A stretch of DNA of 34,454 bases from Candidatus Azambacteria bacterium (GTDB taxonomy: Bacteria > Patescibacteriota > Minisyncoccia > GWC2-36-17 > M10-OD1-4): assembly GCA_027048495.1 (NCBI GenBank), contig JALTWS010000041.1:1-34454 (forward strand), given 5' to 3'. Below the pieces are notes generated by a model. It saw nothing but the letters and a program-made list of their open reading frames with translations. It did no database searches and had not been told where the DNA came from. The translations under genes were made by a program, and so were the position numbers. This document shows positions 1-22,608 of this stretch, piece by piece (positions within the stretch are counted from its first letter, which is position 1; every line of letters starts with the position of its first letter).

Positions 1-857
1 TTTACAGTAATTTTTTGGACTTATCATGTGCAAAATTGATAGATGGTTATATAGTAAAAAATGCAGATTTAAAAACCTATTTTGAGTTTTTTATGACTCA
101 TACAAAAAATAAGTTAATACAAATAAGAGACAACATAAAATATCCTATTTGTATAAACATCGAGGAAGATATAAATAAAATAAGAGTCAAAACTACAAAA
201 AAATATAAAGATGGATGGGAGGAACTTGGTTTTTATTCAAATATTTTTTCTAAACTAAAAGGTGGAGAAAGGAATGAGGTTTTAAACTCTTTGAAAGATT
301 TTATAAAAAAAGAATCATTTTTAGATTATTCAATGAAGGTACAAAATTATAAAAGTGCTCTTGCTTCTAATATGGCTGGTATAGTTAATTTTTTGTCAGA
401 AAAATTTAATAATAATGTCATAATTTGTTTGGAAAATTTGGACAGTGACCAAGTATCAGATCAGAGCAGAAAATTTGGAATACATAGATATATTGAATGG
501 GTCCTGCTTAATAAATTTAAGAAAAAATGTTTAATACCTGAAAAAATAAGTAAACAAATTATTTTAAGAGCAGATTTTTCTGATAATAAAAATTCTAAGG
601 ATGAAAGATTTTATCAGATGGGTAATTTTATCTTTGCTCCAGAAAAAAATACTAGTAAAGAATGTCCTTATTGTGAAGAATTGATGCTTGGTTATAAAAG
701 CGATGAATTTAAAAAATATAAATTTTCTCCTCAAAGATATATAAAATGTAAAAAATGTAATGAGAAATTTGGTTTTGACGAGATTGCTTCAATAAACATA
801 GCTAAAAAAGCAAATGAATATATTATCAATAAAATAAAAAATAACCTTGACAAATAG
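1..857 (+). CDS. Type V CRISPR effector, C-terminal part (Cas12a2-like; 5' end outside window)
   Basis: Frame is open to the window start (reads ..YSNFLDLSCAK). RuvC-II-like 'NNVIICLENLD', zinc ribbon 'NTSKECPYCE...YIKCKKCNEKFGFDEIASINIAKKA' with RuvC-III Asp, no Nuc-domain-length insertion. Directly upstream of cas4-cas1-cas2 and an array with Cas12a-type repeats. Motifs LDLS and NMAGIVNFL resemble Cas12a2 as I remember it. Confidence 0.75.
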   Translation, partial: YSNFLDLSCAKLIDGYIVKNADLKTYFEFFMTHTKNKLIQIRDNIKYPICINIEEDINKIRVKTTKKYKDGWEELGFYSNIFSKLKGGERNEVLNSLKDFIKKESFLDYSMKVQNYKSALASNMAGIVNFLSEKFNNNVIICLENLDSDQVSDQSRKFGIHRYIEWVLLNKFKKKCLIPEKISKQIILRADFSDNKNSKDERFYQMGNFIFAPEKNTSKECPYCEELMLGYKSDEFKKYKFSPQRYIKCKKCNEKFGFDEIASINIAKKANEYIINKIKNNLDK

Positions 858-868
858 TCAAGTTTGTG

Positions 869-908
869 ATAACAAAAACCTACTTTTTAAAAAGTAGGTT
901 TTTGTTAT
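869..908. repeat. 40-bp perfect palindrome between effector gene and cas4, overlapping the cas4 start codon
   Basis: ATAACAAAAACCTACTTTTT|AAAAAGTAGGTTTTTGTTAT; cas4 ATG begins at 907. U-rich 3' arm could act as a terminator/attenuator. Confidence 0.9.
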
Positions 909-1449
909 GGAAGAATATATTCAAATATCAAAACTGAATGACTTTGTTTTTTGCCCTAAATCTATGTATCTTAAGAGCATTTTTGAATCTTTTGATACAA
1001 AAACTTATCATTCAGAATATCAAACAAGGGGAAAGCTAGCGCATGAAAATATTGAGCTTAAAAAATACACAACAGCAAAAAAATCTGTTTTACAGGGAAT
1101 TGAGGTGTATTCTCAAAAATATAATTTAGTTGGAAAAATTGATCTTTATTTTAAAGACAAAAAAGAGCTAGTTGAAAGAAAATATAAGATTAATAAGATT
1201 TACGATGGTCAAAAATTTCAACTTTATGCTCAATATTTTTGCCTTTTGGAAGAGGGTTATGAAGTAGAAAGATTGTCAATTTATTCTTTGTCTGATAACA
1301 AAAAATATAAAATTGATTTGCCAAATGAATATGAAATTAAAAAATTTGAAAAATTAATTGAGAAAATAAAAAGCATAAATATTGAAAGTCAGAATTTTAA
1401 AGTTAATAAAAACAAATGCGATAAATGCATATATAATACTTTGTGTTAA
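907..1449 (+). CDS. cas4: CRISPR-associated Cas4 exonuclease
   Basis: 180 aa; N-terminal 'FVFCPKSMYL', central 'LVGKIDLYFKDKKELVERKYK' (D..ExK nuclease core) and C-terminal 'CDKCIYNTLC' Fe-S cysteines; followed by cas1 and cas2. Confidence 0.93.
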   Translation: MEEYIQISKLNDFVFCPKSMYLKSIFESFDTKTYHSEYQTRGKLAHENIELKKYTTAKKSVLQGIEVYSQKYNLVGKIDLYFKDKKELVERKYKINKIYDGQKFQLYAQYFCLLEEGYEVERLSIYSLSDNKKYKIDLPNEYEIKKFEKLIEKIKSINIESQNFKVNKNKCDKCIYNTLC

Positions 1450-1464
1450 ATTAATTCAAAGCTT

Positions 1465-2436
1465 ATGATGTCACTTCCTGATTTTAAAGAAAAGCAGATT
1501 TTGGTTGTGAAATCAGACCTAGGAGACAGGGCTTTTTTGAGAGTGGATAATGATAATATAGTATTTTATAAAAACGGAGAGTTAAAAAACAAAATTCCGA
1601 GTTTTAAAATATTTGTTTTGTTTGTTATTGGTGATGTTGCTATTACCGGATATTTGCTAAGAAAATTAGCAAGTTATGGCGCAAGTGTGGTTTTTATGAG
1701 TAGAAATTTAAATGCTTATAGCGTTATAAATGCCTTTGGGGAAGGAAATTATATTTTAAGAAATATTCAATATAAGTTGGGAAATTTAAAGGAGCTTGAA
1801 ATGGCAAAACATCTTGTGAAAAATAAAATTTACAATCAGAAATTACTTTTAAAATATAAGGCTGGTGTTGATTTGTCTTTGAGCAAAAGTAAAAAAGAAT
1901 TAGATGAGAAAATTGATCCTATTTTCAATGAAAAAGAGTTGCTTGGGGTAGAAGGGAATTTTTCAAAAGATTTTTTTCAAGTGTTTTTTAAAGAAAATGG
2001 AATAAACTGGCACAAAAGAGCTCCAAGGTCAAAGTACGATGAATACAACTTGCTTTTGGATATGGGCTATACTTTTTTGTTTAATTTCATTGATTCAATT
2101 TTAAAAATTTATGGATTTGATACTTACAAAGGTTTTTATCATAAATTATTTTTTCAAAGAAAATCATTGTCTTGCGATATTATGGAGCCTTTTCGTTGTA
2201 TAATTGATAAGCAAATTGTCAAATCATTTAACTTAGGACAAATAGACAAAGATGATTTTGGTGTTTCAAATGGAAGATATTTTTTAAAAATAGACAAGCA
2301 GGAAAAATATATAAAAATTTTTATTGAAGCGATTTTAAAACATAAAGAAGACATCTTTGTTTATATAAAAGATTTTTATAGATATTTAATGTCAGATGAT
2401 AAAACATTTCCAGAATTTTACTTAAAATTAAAATGA
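1465..2436 (+). CDS. cas1: CRISPR-associated endonuclease Cas1
   Basis: 323 aa; Cas1 pattern 'VGDVAITGYLLRKLASYGASVVFMSRNLNAYSVI..GEGNYILRNIQYK'; between cas4 and cas2. Confidence 0.95.
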   Translation: MMSLPDFKEKQILVVKSDLGDRAFLRVDNDNIVFYKNGELKNKIPSFKIFVLFVIGDVAITGYLLRKLASYGASVVFMSRNLNAYSVINAFGEGNYILRNIQYKLGNLKELEMAKHLVKNKIYNQKLLLKYKAGVDLSLSKSKKELDEKIDPIFNEKELLGVEGNFSKDFFQVFFKENGINWHKRAPRSKYDEYNLLLDMGYTFLFNFIDSILKIYGFDTYKGFYHKLFFQRKSLSCDIMEPFRCIIDKQIVKSFNLGQIDKDDFGVSNGRYFLKIDKQEKYIKIFIEAILKHKEDIFVYIKDFYRYLMSDDKTFPEFYLKLK

Positions 2437-2723
2437 AATATATGATAATACTTTCTTATGACATATCAAATGACAAAACAAGAGCAAGATTTTCTAAGTT
2501 TATTCAAAAGTACGGCAGAAGGCTCCAATACTCTGTTTATGAGATTAAAAACTCAAAAAGAGTTTTAAATAATATAATTTATGAAATTGATTTTAAATTT
2601 AAAAAAGAATTTGAAGATACAGATAGTGTGCTTATTTTGGATATGTGTGCATTATGTGATAGAAAGATAAAAAGATATGGATTTGCTGTGCATGAAGAAA
2701 AAGATCTTGTGTTTTTTAATTAA
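2433..2723 (+). CDS. cas2: CRISPR-associated endoribonuclease Cas2
   Basis: 96 aa; 'MIILSYDISNDKTRARFSKFIQKYGRRLQYSVYEI'; overlaps the cas1 stop by 4 bp. Confidence 0.95.
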   Translation: MKYMIILSYDISNDKTRARFSKFIQKYGRRLQYSVYEIKNSKRVLNNIIYEIDFKFKKEFEDTDSVLILDMCALCDRKIKRYGFAVHEEKDLVFFN

Positions 2724-2938
2724 TGTTGTTATAATAAAAATATAATTCAGTTGTGGCTTTTGAGAGATGCTTTGACAATTTTATAGTAGCAAAGGTGGAA
2801 GTTTACATGTATGTATTTGAATGGAAAACCGAGGTTTTTATTTTTTGAGTATTGAAAAAATCTTTTATTTATGCGGGTTTGCTTTTTGTTGTAAAAAAAT
2901 ACAACGGCGAAAACCCGCATAAATAAAAGAAATTCAGA
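2724..2938 (+). promoter_or_regulatory. CRISPR leader region
   Basis: AT-rich non-coding region between cas2 and the first repeat, on the side with the consensus repeats; contains the inverted repeat at 2861-2930. Confidence 0.75.
2861..2930. repeat. Inverted repeat with 20-bp perfect arms in the leader
   Basis: TCTTTTATTTATGCGGGTTT (2861-2880) and AAACCCGCATAAATAAAAGA (2911-2930); inner GTTGTA/TACAAC stem at 2888-2893/2900-2905. Confidence 0.9.
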
Positions 2939-4790
2939 CTTAAATACATATATTAAATTTCTACTTTTGTAGATAAATTTTATCGCAACTTCTGGGTCTA
3001 CATCTTAAATACATATATTAAATTTCTACTTTTGTAGATAAATTGAAACTTTTTCAAGCATTTTTCTTAAATACATATATTAAATTTCTACTTTTGTAGA
3101 TCTTAATTTCCTCTGCTCTTTTTTCTCCTTAAATACATATATTAAATTTCTACTTTTGTAGATATCGGGTCAAACTTATCACTTAAAGCTTAAATACATA
3201 TATTAAATTTCTACTTTTGTAGATCTGTTGAAATGGCTTCAGCGGCAGACTTAAATACATATATTAAATTTCTACTTTTGTAGATACAGCAAGCATACGA
3301 AGACTTTATGAACCTTAAATACATATATTAAATTTCTACTTTTGTAGATTTGTTGTTTTCCGCATCTAGGATTTCTTAAATACATATATTAAATTTCTAC
3401 TTTTGTAGATCCCAAACTTGCCATATAAGCTATTAAGCTTAAATACATATATTAAATTTCTACTTTTGTAGATGCCGCTTGGGCTTGTGTATATTGCTCC
3501 TTAAATACATATATTAAATTTCTACTTTTGTAGATTAATATGGATAATAAAGTCATAAATATCTTAAATACATATATTAAATTTCTACTTTTGTAGATTC
3601 AACCCCTAGAGGAGCTAAAGGTTCCTTAAATACATATATTAAATTTCTACTTTTGTAGATGTGTCAACATCTGTGACAGCTCCTTCCTTAAATACATATA
3701 TTAAATTTCTACTTTTGTAGATAAATCAGCTGGCAATGTAAAATCATATACTTAAATACATATATTAAATTTCTACTTTTGTAGATCTCAATCTCTTTTT
3801 CGTATTTTTCAGCCTTAAATACATATATTAAATTTCTACTTTTGTAGATCTCACAAGATATCCACAAACCTGCATAACTTAAATACATATATTAAATTTC
3901 TACTTTTGTAGATCCTGTTGCAAGTGCGTATGTTGTAACCTTAAATACATATATTAAATTTCTACTTTTGTAGATTAAAGTATTGATGGTGCCAGAAGGA
4001 TTTACTTAAATACATATATTAAATTTCTACTTTTGTAGATGAAGGTAAACAATATGAGGAGTATCATCCTTAAATACATATATTAAATTTCTACTTTTGT
4101 AGATAGTCAAAGATTTTTATCTTGTTATATCTTAAATACATATATTAAATTTCTACTTTTGTAGATATAGCTTCCTCTAACTTAGGTTTTTCCTTAAATA
4201 CATATATTAAATTTCTACTTTTGTAGATTCATTGTAGAAGTTAACCAACCGCCAGCTTAAATACATATATTAAATTTCTACTTTTGTAGATTGATCCAAA
4301 CAGCTATGATTGTTTACTTAAATACATATATTAAATTTCTACTTTTGTAGATAACCATAACTTTGTTAGATTTTAAATCCTTAAATACATATATTAAATT
4401 TCTACTTTTGTAGATTGTATACTTCAATATGGTGATCAAGCTCTTAAATACATATATTAAATTTCTACTTTTGTAGATAAAAATTAAGCTAGTGCATACC
4501 AGTACTCAAATACATATATTAAATTTCTACTTTTGTAGATCGAAGATATGTCTGTATGCCAGTATTACTCAAATACATATATTAAATTTCTACTTTTGTA
4601 GATAATTATATGTCTAAAAATATAAAAGACTCAAATACATATATTAAATTTCTACTTTTGTAGATGAAATCTTGTTGTGTTTTGTAAATATTCTCAAATA
4701 CATATATTAAATTTCTACTTTTGTAGATAGTTTTTACCTCTGGCCTTGGGCGTCCTCAAATACATATATTAAATTTCTACTTTTGTAGAT
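2939..4790 (+). CRISPR. Type V CRISPR array, 31 repeats / 30 spacers
   Basis: 36-nt repeat CTTAAATACATATATTAAATTTCTACTTTTGTAGAT; spacers 25-29 nt by hand count. Last five repeats (starting 4505, 4568, 4630, 4693, 4755) read CTCAAAT... at the 5' end. Handle orientation indicates + strand transcription. Confidence 0.98.
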
Positions 4791-4887: not shown

Positions 4888-5834
4888 ATGAGTAATAAAC
4901 TAGGAAAAATAAATAGAGTTGATTTAAGGAAAGTTTGGAATCATGAAGCTCGTCATTTTACAAATTGGCTGGCTGAAAATCTTGATATTTTAGGCAATGA
5001 GCTTGGTGTAAATATAAATTTAATAGAAACTGAAGCATCTGTTGGAAAGTTCAGTGTAGATATTTTGGCAGAAGAGGAAATTTCAGGCAAAAAAATAGTA
5101 ATTGAAAATCAATTGGAACCTACAGATCATGAGCATTTGGGAAAGATAATAACTTATGCTGCTGGTTTAGATGCTGGGTTTGTTGTTTGGGTTGTAAGAG
5201 AGGAAAGAGAAGAGTTTAGGAGGGCTATTGATTGGTTAAATGAGCATACAGATGATGAAATATCATTTTTTCTTGTGAGGGTAGAATTGTGGAAAATAGA
5301 TAATTCTTTACCTGCTCCAAAATTTGAAGTTTTGTCAAAGCCAAATGATTGGGCAAAATTTGTTAAATCGTCTCTTATGGGTAGTACTTCCGAGACAAAA
5401 ATTAAGCAAAAAGAGTTTTGGAATGGATTTAAAAAATACGCGCAAGAACATAACACAATTTTAAAACTAGGCAGAACTCCAAGACCACAACAGTGGTATG
5501 ATATAAGCATTGGTTTTTCTAGTTTAGCTCATATAGCGTTAACTATAAATTCTTTAGATGGTTCATTAAGAGTTGAATTGTATATAAAAAAGATAAGTCA
5601 TTATTTGATTTTTTAGAAAAACACAAAGTTGGTATAGAATCTAAAACAGGAAAACTTATTTGGAATAGATTAGATAATAGAAAAGTAAGTTATATAAGAA
5701 CAGAAAGAAAATTTGATATAGATGATCAGAAAAAAAGAGAAGAATATTTTGATTGGTTGCAGAAAAATTCAGAAAATTTCTATAAAATCTTTACAAAATA
5801 TATTGAAAAATATAAATCAAAAAATAATAAATAA
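4888..5834 (+). pseudogene. DUF4268-family protein with PD-(D/E)XK-like N-terminal region, apparently frameshifted
   Basis: First frame 4888-5616 ends abruptly at '..LRVELYIKKISHYLIF*'. Shifting frame at the A6 run near 5590 continues as 'DKSLFDFLEKHKVGIESKTGKLIWNRLDNRKVSYIRTERKFDIDDQKKREEYFDWLQKNSENFYKIF..' to TAA at 5832-5834, which fits the DUF4268 C-terminus. N-terminal 'FSVDILAEE..KKIVIENQLE' resembles a D..ExQ nuclease core. Confidence 0.75.
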
Positions 5835-20274: not shown

Positions 20275-22608
20275 TTATCTTTTTAAATCAACAGAAGGCT
20301 TAGGTATTTTACATATTCCTTCGTATGCTATTTTAACCCCATTTTGTTTTGTTGCTACACATGCATTTGGATAGGTTTTGCCGTCAACTCCACATACTGG
20401 TTTGTATTGTTGAGTGCAGAGTACATTGCTTTGTGGTGGAAATGTTTTATTAAATTCTTTTTCTTCTTCCATCATTTCTTCTTCCATCATTTCTTCTTCC
20501 ATCATTTCTTCTTTCATCGTTTTTTCTCTTTCTTCCATCATTTCTCTTTTTTTCTTAAAAGCGTCTCTTATTTCATCTTCTCTTATTATTCTTGGTTTTG
20601 TGCCTTTTTCTGAATTATCTTTTAACTCTCTTCTTAACTCTCTTTTTTCTCCAAGTCTTTTTTCAAACTCTTCGTTTATAACTTTTTTGGGTTTTAAAGA
20701 AGACGGGGTTTTATTTGTCTCTGGTTGTATTTGGGAAGATTTTATTATTCTTATTACATTTCTTGATATTCTTAAAGAAGCATTAGCTTTTCCAAATGCT
20801 TCGCCAAAATCTTCTTCATTAAACGCTTCTTGTGCGTCTTTTAGTTTTTCTGCTGATTCTTTTATCATTCTTTCTATAAGAGTCCTTCTTGCTGTATTTT
20901 CAAATGATTTTGCTGTTCTTTTTGCATCTTCCAAAGAGCTTTTTGCCATTCTTATAGTTCTTTCTGCTCTTTCTCTCATAAAAGAGTCTTTGTTTTTTAT
21001 TTTATTTATAACTTCAGGATCTATTTTTTCAAAAGCTTCTTTTAATTCTTTTTGTCTTTCTATTTTTTCTTTTAATAGCCTTATTCTTTTTGAATCATCT
21101 GACATATCTATTCTATTTTTTATTCTTTCCAATTGGTATTCTCTTAGCTCTTTAAGCCTTTCTCTCTCTTCTTCTGATGCGTCTTCTAATATTTTTTCAA
21201 GGACTCTTATTGTTGTTGGGTCATCACTGGTTATTCTTTTTAATATAGCTTTTTTTTGTTGTGGATCAGAAGTGCTGTTTAACGCTCGTAGTATATTTTC
21301 TCTTGCTTGTCTTTTTGCTTCTCTTATGAAAACTTTGTCTTTTTCTGGAAGTTCCATCTCAAGCTCTTCTAAAGCTTCTAGGGATTCTATGTCTTTTGCT
21401 TTTTTTAGGATAGCAGCTCTTCTTTCAGGATTTTGAATCAATCTTTTAGCATTGTTTTTTGCTATTTTTTTAATTTTTTGAATTTCTTGTGCAGTCTGTT
21501 GGTCTACATTGTTTTCTATTTTCTTTAAGATTTTTAAGTCTTCAACATCTCCATCTTCAAGGTGTTTTAGTATAGCTCTTCTTGCCTGAGGATTTTTTAC
21601 TTGCTTTAGTTCTTTTTCTATTTTTCTGAAGAGTCTATCTTGAGATTTTACCATTATTTCTTTTAAGTATTCTGGGGAGTCATCTTCTAACTCTTCAATT
21701 AAAGCCAACTGTCTTGCTGGGTTTCCTGATATTTTGCTTAAATAATCAACAAACCTTTCTCTATCTTCAGGATTTGCTTTTGACAATCTTTCATTTAATC
21801 TTTTTAATGTATTTTCTCTTGCTCTTTTTATAGCTTCTTTAGCTTCTTCTGGAGCTTTTTGTTCTATCATTTCTAAAACTTCCAAATTTTTAAAATCTTT
21901 AAATTTGCTTCCTTTTTGGTTTTGTAGTATTTTTGCTAGTCTTTTTTCTAGTTTTTGCGGATCATCAACAGTTGTTATTGTTTTTACAAATCTTTCTAAG
22001 GCTTTTTCTCTTCTTTGCTCTATTTTTTCTTTAGCTTCTTCAGGAAGGTTATTTTCCAGTTTTTCTAGAAGCTTTTGATGCTTTATTTCTTTATCAGCAA
22101 GCCTGTCCAATATTTTTTCTATTTTATCTGCTTTTTTTGGGTCGTTTCTTACAGCCTCTATTCTTTTTAGTATCTTTTCTTTTTCTTTTTCATATTTTTC
22201 AAGAGCTCTTTCTACTTTTTTGGGATCTTTTGTTTTTTCTGCCAATTTTTTTAACTCAATAATCCTTTCATCTGCATATCGCAAACCTAGTTCAGCTTTT
22301 TTTACTGGATCAAAAGTTAAAGAATATTTTATAATTCTTCCTATATTTTTAAAAAAATACAGACCGCTGTCAGGAAGTAGGATAGGTTCTTGTATTTGCA
22401 AGTCTTCTGAAGTAACATCTTCATCTTGTTTTACAAGATCATCTGCAGAAATGTCTATTGCTTCAGGCTCTTGAAATGTCCCCAAAGAAGCGTCTGGTAT
22501 TGCGTCTTGTGTTGTTTGCGGGGTAGTTGTTTGAGCAGATGCATAATCAAAAAAAACAAACATGCAAAAAACTAAAACACTAAGAAAAAAAAGCTTATTT
22601 TTTATCAT
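20275..22608 (-). CDS. Secreted DUF5667 protein with helical repeats, EEEMM repeat and C-terminal Kazal-type domain
   Basis: Signal peptide; 'PDSGLYFFKNIGRIIKYSLTFDPVKKAELGLRYADERI' (DUF5667); C-terminal 'LCTQQYKPVCGVDGKTYPNACVATKQNGVKIAYEGIC' (Kazal). Confidence 0.88.
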   Translation of the reverse strand: MIKNKLFFLSVLVFCMFVFFDYASAQTTTPQTTQDAIPDASLGTFQEPEAIDISADDLVKQDEDVTSEDLQIQEPILLPDSGLYFFKNIGRIIKYSLTFDPVKKAELGLRYADERIIELKKLAEKTKDPKKVERALEKYEKEKEKILKRIEAVRNDPKKADKIEKILDRLADKEIKHQKLLEKLENNLPEEAKEKIEQRREKALERFVKTITTVDDPQKLEKRLAKILQNQKGSKFKDFKNLEVLEMIEQKAPEEAKEAIKRARENTLKRLNERLSKANPEDRERFVDYLSKISGNPARQLALIEELEDDSPEYLKEIMVKSQDRLFRKIEKELKQVKNPQARRAILKHLEDGDVEDLKILKKIENNVDQQTAQEIQKIKKIAKNNAKRLIQNPERRAAILKKAKDIESLEALEELEMELPEKDKVFIREAKRQARENILRALNSTSDPQQKKAILKRITSDDPTTIRVLEKILEDASEEERERLKELREYQLERIKNRIDMSDDSKRIRLLKEKIERQKELKEAFEKIDPEVINKIKNKDSFMRERAERTIRMAKSSLEDAKRTAKSFENTARRTLIERMIKESAEKLKDAQEAFNEEDFGEAFGKANASLRISRNVIRIIKSSQIQPETNKTPSSLKPKKVINEEFEKRLGEKRELRRELKDNSEKGTKPRIIREDEIRDAFKKKREMMEEREKTMKEEMMEEEMMEEEMMEEEKEFNKTFPPQSNVLCTQQYKPVCGVDGKTYPNACVATKQNGVKIAYEGICKIPKPSVDLKR
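20461..20519. repeat. 15-bp in-frame tandem repeat (TTCTTCTTCCATCAT)
   Basis: Three exact units 20461-20505 plus a degenerate fourth; encodes EEEMM repeats on the minus strand. Confidence 0.93.

What the first reader, a model, noticed from the sequence alone, without database searches (positions are those of the whole stretch)
1..857. Type V effector looks Cas12a2-like, with a zinc ribbon in place of the Cas12a Nuc domain
Seen in sequence: between the RuvC-II-like 'IICLENLD' and the C-terminus there are only about 145 aa, containing CPYC...CKKC and ending with a RuvC-III-like 'FDEIASINIAKKA'. Canonical Cas12a has a long Nuc insertion here and no CxxC pairs. Established: Cas12a2 shares the Cas12a repeat handle but carries a zinc-ribbon domain instead of Nuc, and acts by RNA-triggered collateral nucleic acid cleavage. 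The motifs 'LDLS' and 'NMAGIVNFL' resemble Cas12a2 from memory. If confirmed, this is a divergent Cas12a2-type effector with its own cas4-cas1-cas2 and a long array. No canonical Cas12a is visible here, though the upstream side is not shown.
Basis: partly seen in the sequence, partly recalled or inferred. Interest (0 to 1): 0.88.

Follow-up and report, generated by a model that had tools for sequence, protein, structure and literature searches.

The report
RNA-activated Cas12a relative beside Cas12a
A small-genome bacterium carries, next to its immune-memory array, the tail part of a CRISPR enzyme that most resembles a recently described group which probably senses viral RNA and then cuts RNA to halt the infected cell, seemingly paired with an ordinary DNA-cutting Cas12a that uses the same memory.

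Summary
Window 3-857 is the last 284 aa of a type V effector, cut by the contig start, with RuvC-II Glu144, RuvC-III Asp259 and a CPYC/CKKC zinc ribbon; only 24 aa separate the cysteine pairs, so there is no Nuc domain. It is not strict Cas12a2 either: its closest solved relatives are Cas12a3, and the RuvC-II segment that carries three of four aromatic-clamp residues of SuCas12a2 is missing (21 aa against 47). It is not Cas12a3: the tRNA-loading domain (tRLD) is absent (insertion 117 aa against 190-204). It fits tRLD-less relatives found in six other genomes, perhaps Cas12a4, but on a long branch whose exact place is unresolved. The genome holds one readable array (30 repeats), one cas1 and, on another contig, an intact Cas12a; an ORF that overlaps that cas12a's stop codon and runs off the contig is probably this effector's N-terminus. 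Most likely function: crRNA-guided, RNA-activated RNA cleavage causing growth arrest, paired with DNA-cutting Cas12a on a shared array. Activity, RuvC-I and the middle of the protein could not be tested.

The parts
3..857 (+). C-terminal 284 aa of a tRLD-less Cas12a3/Cas12a4-type effector; 5' end cut by the contig edge
   Evidence: phmmer to Cas12a3 21we E 1e-13 and 9hlx E 1e-11; PADLOC PDLC01232/01230 E 1e-31 over profile positions 702-949; tree
15..134 (+). LDLSCAKLIDGYIVKNAD... segment that opens the insertion domain standing in for the Cas12a bridge helix
   Evidence: L5 D6 L7 A10 K11 I13 I17 D22 invariant in 10 homologues; aligned
135..368 (+). short remainder of the insertion; tRNA-loading domain absent
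   Evidence: LDL-to-NxxG distance 117 aa here, 107-140 in tRLD-less relatives, 190-204 in Cas12a3
420..443 (+). RuvC-II, IICLENLD, catalytic Glu144 (nt 432-434)
   Evidence: invariant column
435..497 (+). RuvC-II loop that lacks the Cas12a2 segment carrying Y1069, Y1080 and F1092
   Evidence: Glu144 to Glu165 is 21 aa here, 22-24 in all relatives, 47 in SuCas12a2; clamp residues from PMC9849127
663..758 (+). zinc ribbon CPYC...CKKC, 24 aa between the pairs, no Nuc insertion
   Evidence: Pfam PF07282 above cut-off; Cys221/224/249/252 invariant; spacing
774..812 (+). RuvC-III, FDEIASINIAKKA, Asp259 (nt 777-779)
   Evidence: invariant column
907..1449 (+). cas4, PREFRAN/type V-A kind
   Evidence: TIGR04328 E 3e-66
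1465..2436 (+). cas1, PREFRAN/type V-A kind; the only cas1 found in the genome
   Evidence: TIGR04329 E 2e-96
2433..2723 (+). cas2
   Evidence: PF09827 E 6e-14, TIGR01573
2861..2930 (+). long hairpin (20-nt perfect arms plus inner stem) between cas2 and the first repeat; role unknown
   Evidence: inverted repeat; -35.3 kcal/mol, z -7.8 for window 2840-2935
2939..4790 (+). CRISPR array: 30 repeats of 36 nt ending AATTTCTACTTTTGTAGAT (Cas12a-type handle), 29 spacers of 25-29 nt

Best explanation
This is the C-terminal quarter of a divergent effector of the Cas12a3/Cas12a4 side of the Cas12a2/a3/a4 radiation, with neither the C-terminal Cas12a2 aromatic-clamp segment nor the Cas12a3 tRNA-loading domain. 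It is probably the second gene of a cas12a - effector - cas4 - cas1 - cas2 - array operon. Most likely mechanism: it processes and binds crRNAs from the shared array; pairing with a complementary phage transcript beside a suitable 3' flank opens the RuvC site; the enzyme then cleaves RNA broadly rather than dsDNA or only tRNA tails, giving growth arrest that backs up DNA cleavage by Cas12a. Shown here: homology, RuvC-II and RuvC-III residues, zinc ribbon, absence of Nuc, of the tRLD and of the C-terminal clamp segment, cas4-cas1-cas2, the array handle, and the presence of Cas12a in the same genome. Inferred: the join to contig C39, crRNA processing, RNA activation, RNA-only substrate, growth arrest.
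For: Nearest solved proteins are Cas12a3, with no Cas12a among the hits; the five best Foldseek matches are Cas12a3 entries (from a model of only pLDDT 61). Tree: window with the Cas12a3 and tRLD-less effectors at 100/98, apart from 14 Cas12a and SuCas12a2; window with Cas12a rejected at p 0.037. RuvC-II spacing 21 aa as in the relatives (22-24), not 47 as in SuCas12a2. Insertion 117 aa, in the tRLD-less range. Cas1 groups with Cas1 of three tRLD-less systems and of patescibacterial Cas12a loci, 100/99, away from the Cas1 of the Cas12a3 systems tested. In six relatives the effector starts -7 to +31 nt from the cas12a stop; the ORF after the genome's own cas12a starts at -4 nt, ranks first of 877 ORFs against an N-terminal effector profile (E 0.047, 2 of 2000 shuffles higher), and its model's best PDB match is Cas12a3 (prob 0.41). 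Published Cas12a3 and Cas12a4, which lack the clamp, cleave RNA and not DNA, and ApCas12a4 does not show the tRNA-tail pattern (PMC12851939).
Against: Only 284 aa are readable: RuvC-I, the crRNA-processing and flank-reading residues and the Y465-side clamp are missing. The window is a long branch (2.4-3.8 changes per column) and its place among the three subgroups is not resolved; one analysis does not reject pairing with SuCas12a2 (p 0.15). No reference Cas12a4 sequence could be compared. Other RNA-selective features could replace the tRLD. The match of the C39 ORF is not significant on its own, and its fold model used an alignment that contains Cas12a3. The Cas1 of one tRLD-less system (L085) falls with the Cas12a3 systems. 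No protospacer was found and spacers show no strand bias.
Confidence: 0.62

Rival explanations
1. A true Cas12a2: RNA-activated, shreds RNA, ssDNA and dsDNA.
For: Zinc ribbon, insertion in place of the bridge helix, and a profile of the family reaches SuCas12a2 (E 3e-12); pairing with SuCas12a2 not rejected in the effector-only tree (p 0.15).
Against: The segment holding Y1069, Y1080 and F1092 is missing; Cas12a3 is clearly nearer; window+SuCas12a2 rejected at p 0.038 in the larger tree.
Confidence: 0.12
2. A Cas12a3 that removes tRNA 3' tails.
For: Best database matches are Cas12a3; a window+Cas12a3 clade is not rejected (p 0.27-0.41) and appears in one tree with weak support (76/67).
Against: An insertion of 117 aa leaves no room for the roughly 105-aa tRNA-loading domain seen as a 190-204 aa insertion in every Cas12a3 here, and removing that domain cripples Ba1Cas12a3 (PMC12851939); Cas1 lies apart from the Cas12a3 systems tested.
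Confidence: 0.12
3. A divergent DNA-targeting Cas12a that lost its Nuc domain.
For: Same array handle, same adaptation genes, and PADLOC files the matching models under the name Cas12a.
Against: No PF18516 match, grouping with 14 Cas12a rejected at p 0.037, and the genome already has an intact Cas12a. The PADLOC models that match score Cas12a3 highest, up to 1105 bits, so their label is loose.
Confidence: 0.05
4. A truncated, dead effector: the gene really ends at or near the contig edge.
For: The 5' part is not readable and the gene sits at a contig end.
Against: 284 aa without a stop, catalytic and zinc residues all kept, intact cas4-cas1-cas2 and 30 nearly identical repeats; ten contigs of 1.8-2.9 kb are withheld, so a missing middle is expected.
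Confidence: 0.07

Closest known systems
Cas12a4 (ApCas12a4; Dmytrenko et al. 2026, PMC12851939)
   Same: Radiation related to Cas12a2, RuvC and zinc ribbon kept, aromatic clamp poorly kept or absent, RNA-activated RNA cleavage without tRNA-tail preference reported
   Different: No Cas12a4 sequence could be compared here; the window is on its own long branch and highest identity to any relative found is 33-37% over the C-terminal part
Cas12a3 (Ba1Cas12a3, PDB 9hlx; 21we)
   Same: Best sequence and fold matches; same zinc ribbon, RuvC-II loop length and LDL...AK motif
   Different: Lacks the tRNA-loading domain: insertion 117 against 190-204 aa
Cas12a2 (SuCas12a2, PDB 8d49)
   Same: Zinc ribbon in place of Nuc, insertion in place of bridge helix, ANMIGIVNY-like motif
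   Different: Lacks the roughly 26-aa RuvC-II segment that carries Y1069, Y1080 and F1092; far weaker similarity
Cas12a (the genome's own, contig C39, and LbCas12a)
   Same: Array handle and PREFRAN-type cas4 and cas1
   Different: Cas12a has a Nuc domain (155 aa between the cysteine pairs in the genome's own copy) and PF18516; the window protein has neither

Membership tests
Cas12a2 | Zinc ribbon in place of the Nuc domain | tested here: met
   24 aa between the CxxC pairs; PF07282
Cas12a2 | Aromatic clamp residues Y1069, Y1080, F1092 in the RuvC-II loop | tested here: not met
   Segment absent: 21 against 47 aa between conserved glutamates
Cas12a2 | Aromatic clamp residue Y465 | not testable with these tools
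   That part of the protein is not in readable sequence
Cas12a2 | Groups with Cas12a2 in a tree | tested here: inconclusive
   Rejected p 0.038, not rejected p 0.15; only one Cas12a2 available
Cas12a3 | tRNA-loading domain in the insertion | tested here: not met
   117 against 190-204 aa
Cas12a3 | RuvC-II and RuvC-III residues, zinc ribbon, no C-terminal aromatic clamp | tested here: met
Cas12a3 | Groups with Cas12a3 in a tree | tested here: inconclusive
   Not rejected, weakly joined; Cas1 tree puts it elsewhere
Cas12a4 | Retained RuvC and zinc ribbon with limited or no aromatic clamp | tested here: met
   definition from PMC12851939. RuvC-I and the Y465 side are not readable
Cas12a4 | Falls in the Cas12a4 clade | not testable with these tools
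   The ApCas12a4 sequence is only in supplementary files that cannot be read here; which of the tRLD-less groups is Cas12a4 is therefore unknown
Cas12a4 | RNA-activated RNA cleavage without DNA cleavage | not testable with these tools
   Needs an experiment
Cas12a | Nuc domain before RuvC-III; PF18516 | tested here: not met
Cas12a | Groups with Cas12a in a tree | tested here: not met
   p 0.037, marginal
Cas12a2/a3/a4 radiation as a whole | RuvC-I catalytic Asp | not testable with these tools
   Lies upstream of the contig start
Cas12a2/a3/a4 radiation as a whole | Array with Cas12a-type handle and cas4-cas1-cas2 | tested here: met

The most novel reading that the evidence does not exclude
A separate clade beside Cas12a2, Cas12a3 and Cas12a4, so far seen in one small-genome (probably patescibacterial) lineage, with a very compact zinc-ribbon/RuvC-III end and its own collateral substrate, working from one array together with a DNA-cutting Cas12a.
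Probability: 0.25. Interest if true: 0.65.

Novelty: new member of a known kind. Interest (0 to 1): 0.5.

Why it matters
The Cas12a2/a3/a4 radiation changes collateral substrate by gaining or losing small domains. A member with neither the C-terminal dsDNA-clamp segment nor the tRNA-loading domain shows what the stripped-down scaffold looks like and asks what it cuts. The locus also makes a general point testable: in 12 of 18 relatives' genomes, and here, such an effector shares its genome with a strong Cas12a match, usually as the next gene and with one adaptation module, suggesting that DNA cleavage and RNA-triggered arrest run from the same memory.

Tried and rejected
Single-sequence scans of genome and viral collections found nothing, as did profile scans of viral contigs, plasmids and phages. 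Only the profile scan of genome contigs worked. In 380 genomes of the same phylum no second copy was found, by protein or by PADLOC model. End-overlap of C39 and C41 with other contigs gave only chance 14-mers. A first statistical test of the C39 ORF reread old score tables because of incompatible options and was replaced. Protospacer searches and spacer strand bias gave nothing. Reading CxxC pairs as proof against Cas12a was rejected because the genome's own Cas12a has them. The hairpin before the array has no other copy in the loci held and no Rfam match.

Full report
What is there. The window is one whole contig (G000:C41) of a 0.80-Mb, 46-contig genome estimated 98.6% complete. ORF 3-857 is open at the contig start and codes for the last 284 aa of a type V effector. 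RuvC-II Glu144, RuvC-III Asp259 and the four cysteines 221, 224, 249 and 252 are invariant in an alignment with ten homologues. The two cysteine pairs are 24 aa apart, so no Nuc domain fits between them. Cas4 and Cas1 are of the PREFRAN (type V-A) kind, followed by Cas2. The array has 30 repeats of 36 nt with the Cas12a handle and 29 spacers.

What it is related to. By single-sequence search the only convincing solved relatives are two Cas12a3 proteins. A small profile reaches SuCas12a2 at 1e-6 and a larger one at 3e-12. PADLOC models PDLC01232 and PDLC01230, filed as Cas12a, match at 1e-31; they score Ba1Cas12a3 at over 1000 bits, so the label hides the a3/a4 group. A profile scan of GTDB genomes returned 18 relatives. 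L077 matches the 21we Cas12a3 sequence and L082 matches Ba1Cas12a3 over the stretches shown.

Two length features sort the family. The insertion between the LDL motif and the NxxG motif is 190-204 aa in Cas12a3, where it holds the tRNA-loading domain, tRLD (PMC12851939), but 107-140 aa in six other relatives (L075, L076, L078, L079, L085, L091) and 117 aa in the window. The stretch from the RuvC-II glutamate to the next conserved glutamate is 47 aa in SuCas12a2 and carries Y1069, Y1080 and F1092, residues required for dsDNA cleavage (PMC9849127). It is 22-24 aa in all relatives and 21 aa in the window. The window protein therefore has neither special segment.

Trees. On 155 RuvC-II to RuvC-III columns the window joins the Cas12a3 and tRLD-less effectors with 100/98 support, away from 14 Cas12a and SuCas12a2. 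Forcing it into Cas12a or next to SuCas12a2 is rejected only marginally (p 0.037 and 0.038), and the second is not rejected in an effector-only tree (p 0.15). Its branch is very long and its place among the three subgroups is open. Cas1 is an independent marker: the window's Cas1 groups with those of three tRLD-less systems and of patescibacterial Cas12a loci (100/99), apart from the Cas1 of the Cas12a3 systems tested; the Cas1 of one tRLD-less system, L085, falls on the Cas12a3 side. A fold model of the fragment is weak (pLDDT 61), but its five best PDB matches are all Cas12a3.

The partner. The same genome has an intact 1272-aa Cas12a at the end of contig C39, matching Cas12a models at 1e-221. 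The window array is the only one found with this handle and the window cas1 the only cas1; withheld short contigs could hide more. In 12 of 18 relatives' genomes a strong Cas12a match is present, and a 13th has a broken remnant; the usual order is cas12a - effector - cas4 - cas1 - cas2 - array. In six loci the effector starts within -7 to +31 nt of the cas12a stop. Here an ORF of at least 138 aa starts 4 nt before the cas12a stop and runs off the contig. It is the best of 877 ORFs against a profile of effector N-termini, though only at E 0.047 with 2 of 2000 shuffles higher. A model of it, built with relatives' N-termini and so partly circular, matches Cas12a3 best, weakly. I take C39 and C41 to be neighbours with about 1.8-2.0 kb missing; ten contigs of 1.8-2.9 kb are withheld as N. 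This join is inference.

How it probably works. Established for the family (PMC9811890, PMC9849127, PMC12851939): crRNA pairing with an RNA beside a suitable 3' flank exposes the RuvC site. With the clamp, dsDNA is shredded (Cas12a2); without it, RNA alone is cut (Cas12a3, Cas12a4); the tRNA-loading domain aims Cas12a3 at tRNA tails. Having neither, the window protein most likely cuts RNA broadly, as reported for ApCas12a4. The step from anatomy to activity is inference.

Verdict. It is a divergent new member of a known radiation; a separate clade is possible but not shown.

Noticed in passing
window 4888-5834: A DUF4268 gene matching PADLOC candidate defence family PDC-S11 (E 8e-99) lies right after the array and is split by a frameshift near 5600: residues 1-235 of the model are in one frame and the rest in another.
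   Followed up: partly
window 2861-2930: A very stable hairpin with 20-nt perfect arms (z -7.8) sits between cas2 and the first repeat; no other copy in the loci held and no Rfam match.
   Followed up: partly
L003:5459-9277 (contig C39): The genome's own Cas12a is a deep-branching one that keeps both zinc-ribbon cysteine pairs on either side of the Nuc region; patescibacterial L065 and L066 do too.
   Followed up: partly
L075, L076, L078, L079, L085, L091: Six tRLD-less relatives from Bdellovibrionales, Elusimicrobia, Gastranaerophilales, Campylobacter and Haliotispira fall into two groups; whether one or both are Cas12a4 could not be checked.
   Followed up: partly
L090 genome (G397): A broken Cas12a remnant with three stops lies in the genome of this Cas12a3 locus, suggesting that the Cas12a partner can be lost.
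   Followed up: no
PADLOC PDLC01230 and PDLC01232: These models are labelled Cas12a but fit Cas12a3 and tRLD-less effectors far better than canonical Cas12a, so annotation based on them will hide such systems.
   Followed up: partly
window 20275-22608 (-): A long charged helical protein ends in a cysteine pattern that looks like a Kazal-type inhibitor domain; seen by eye only.
   Followed up: no
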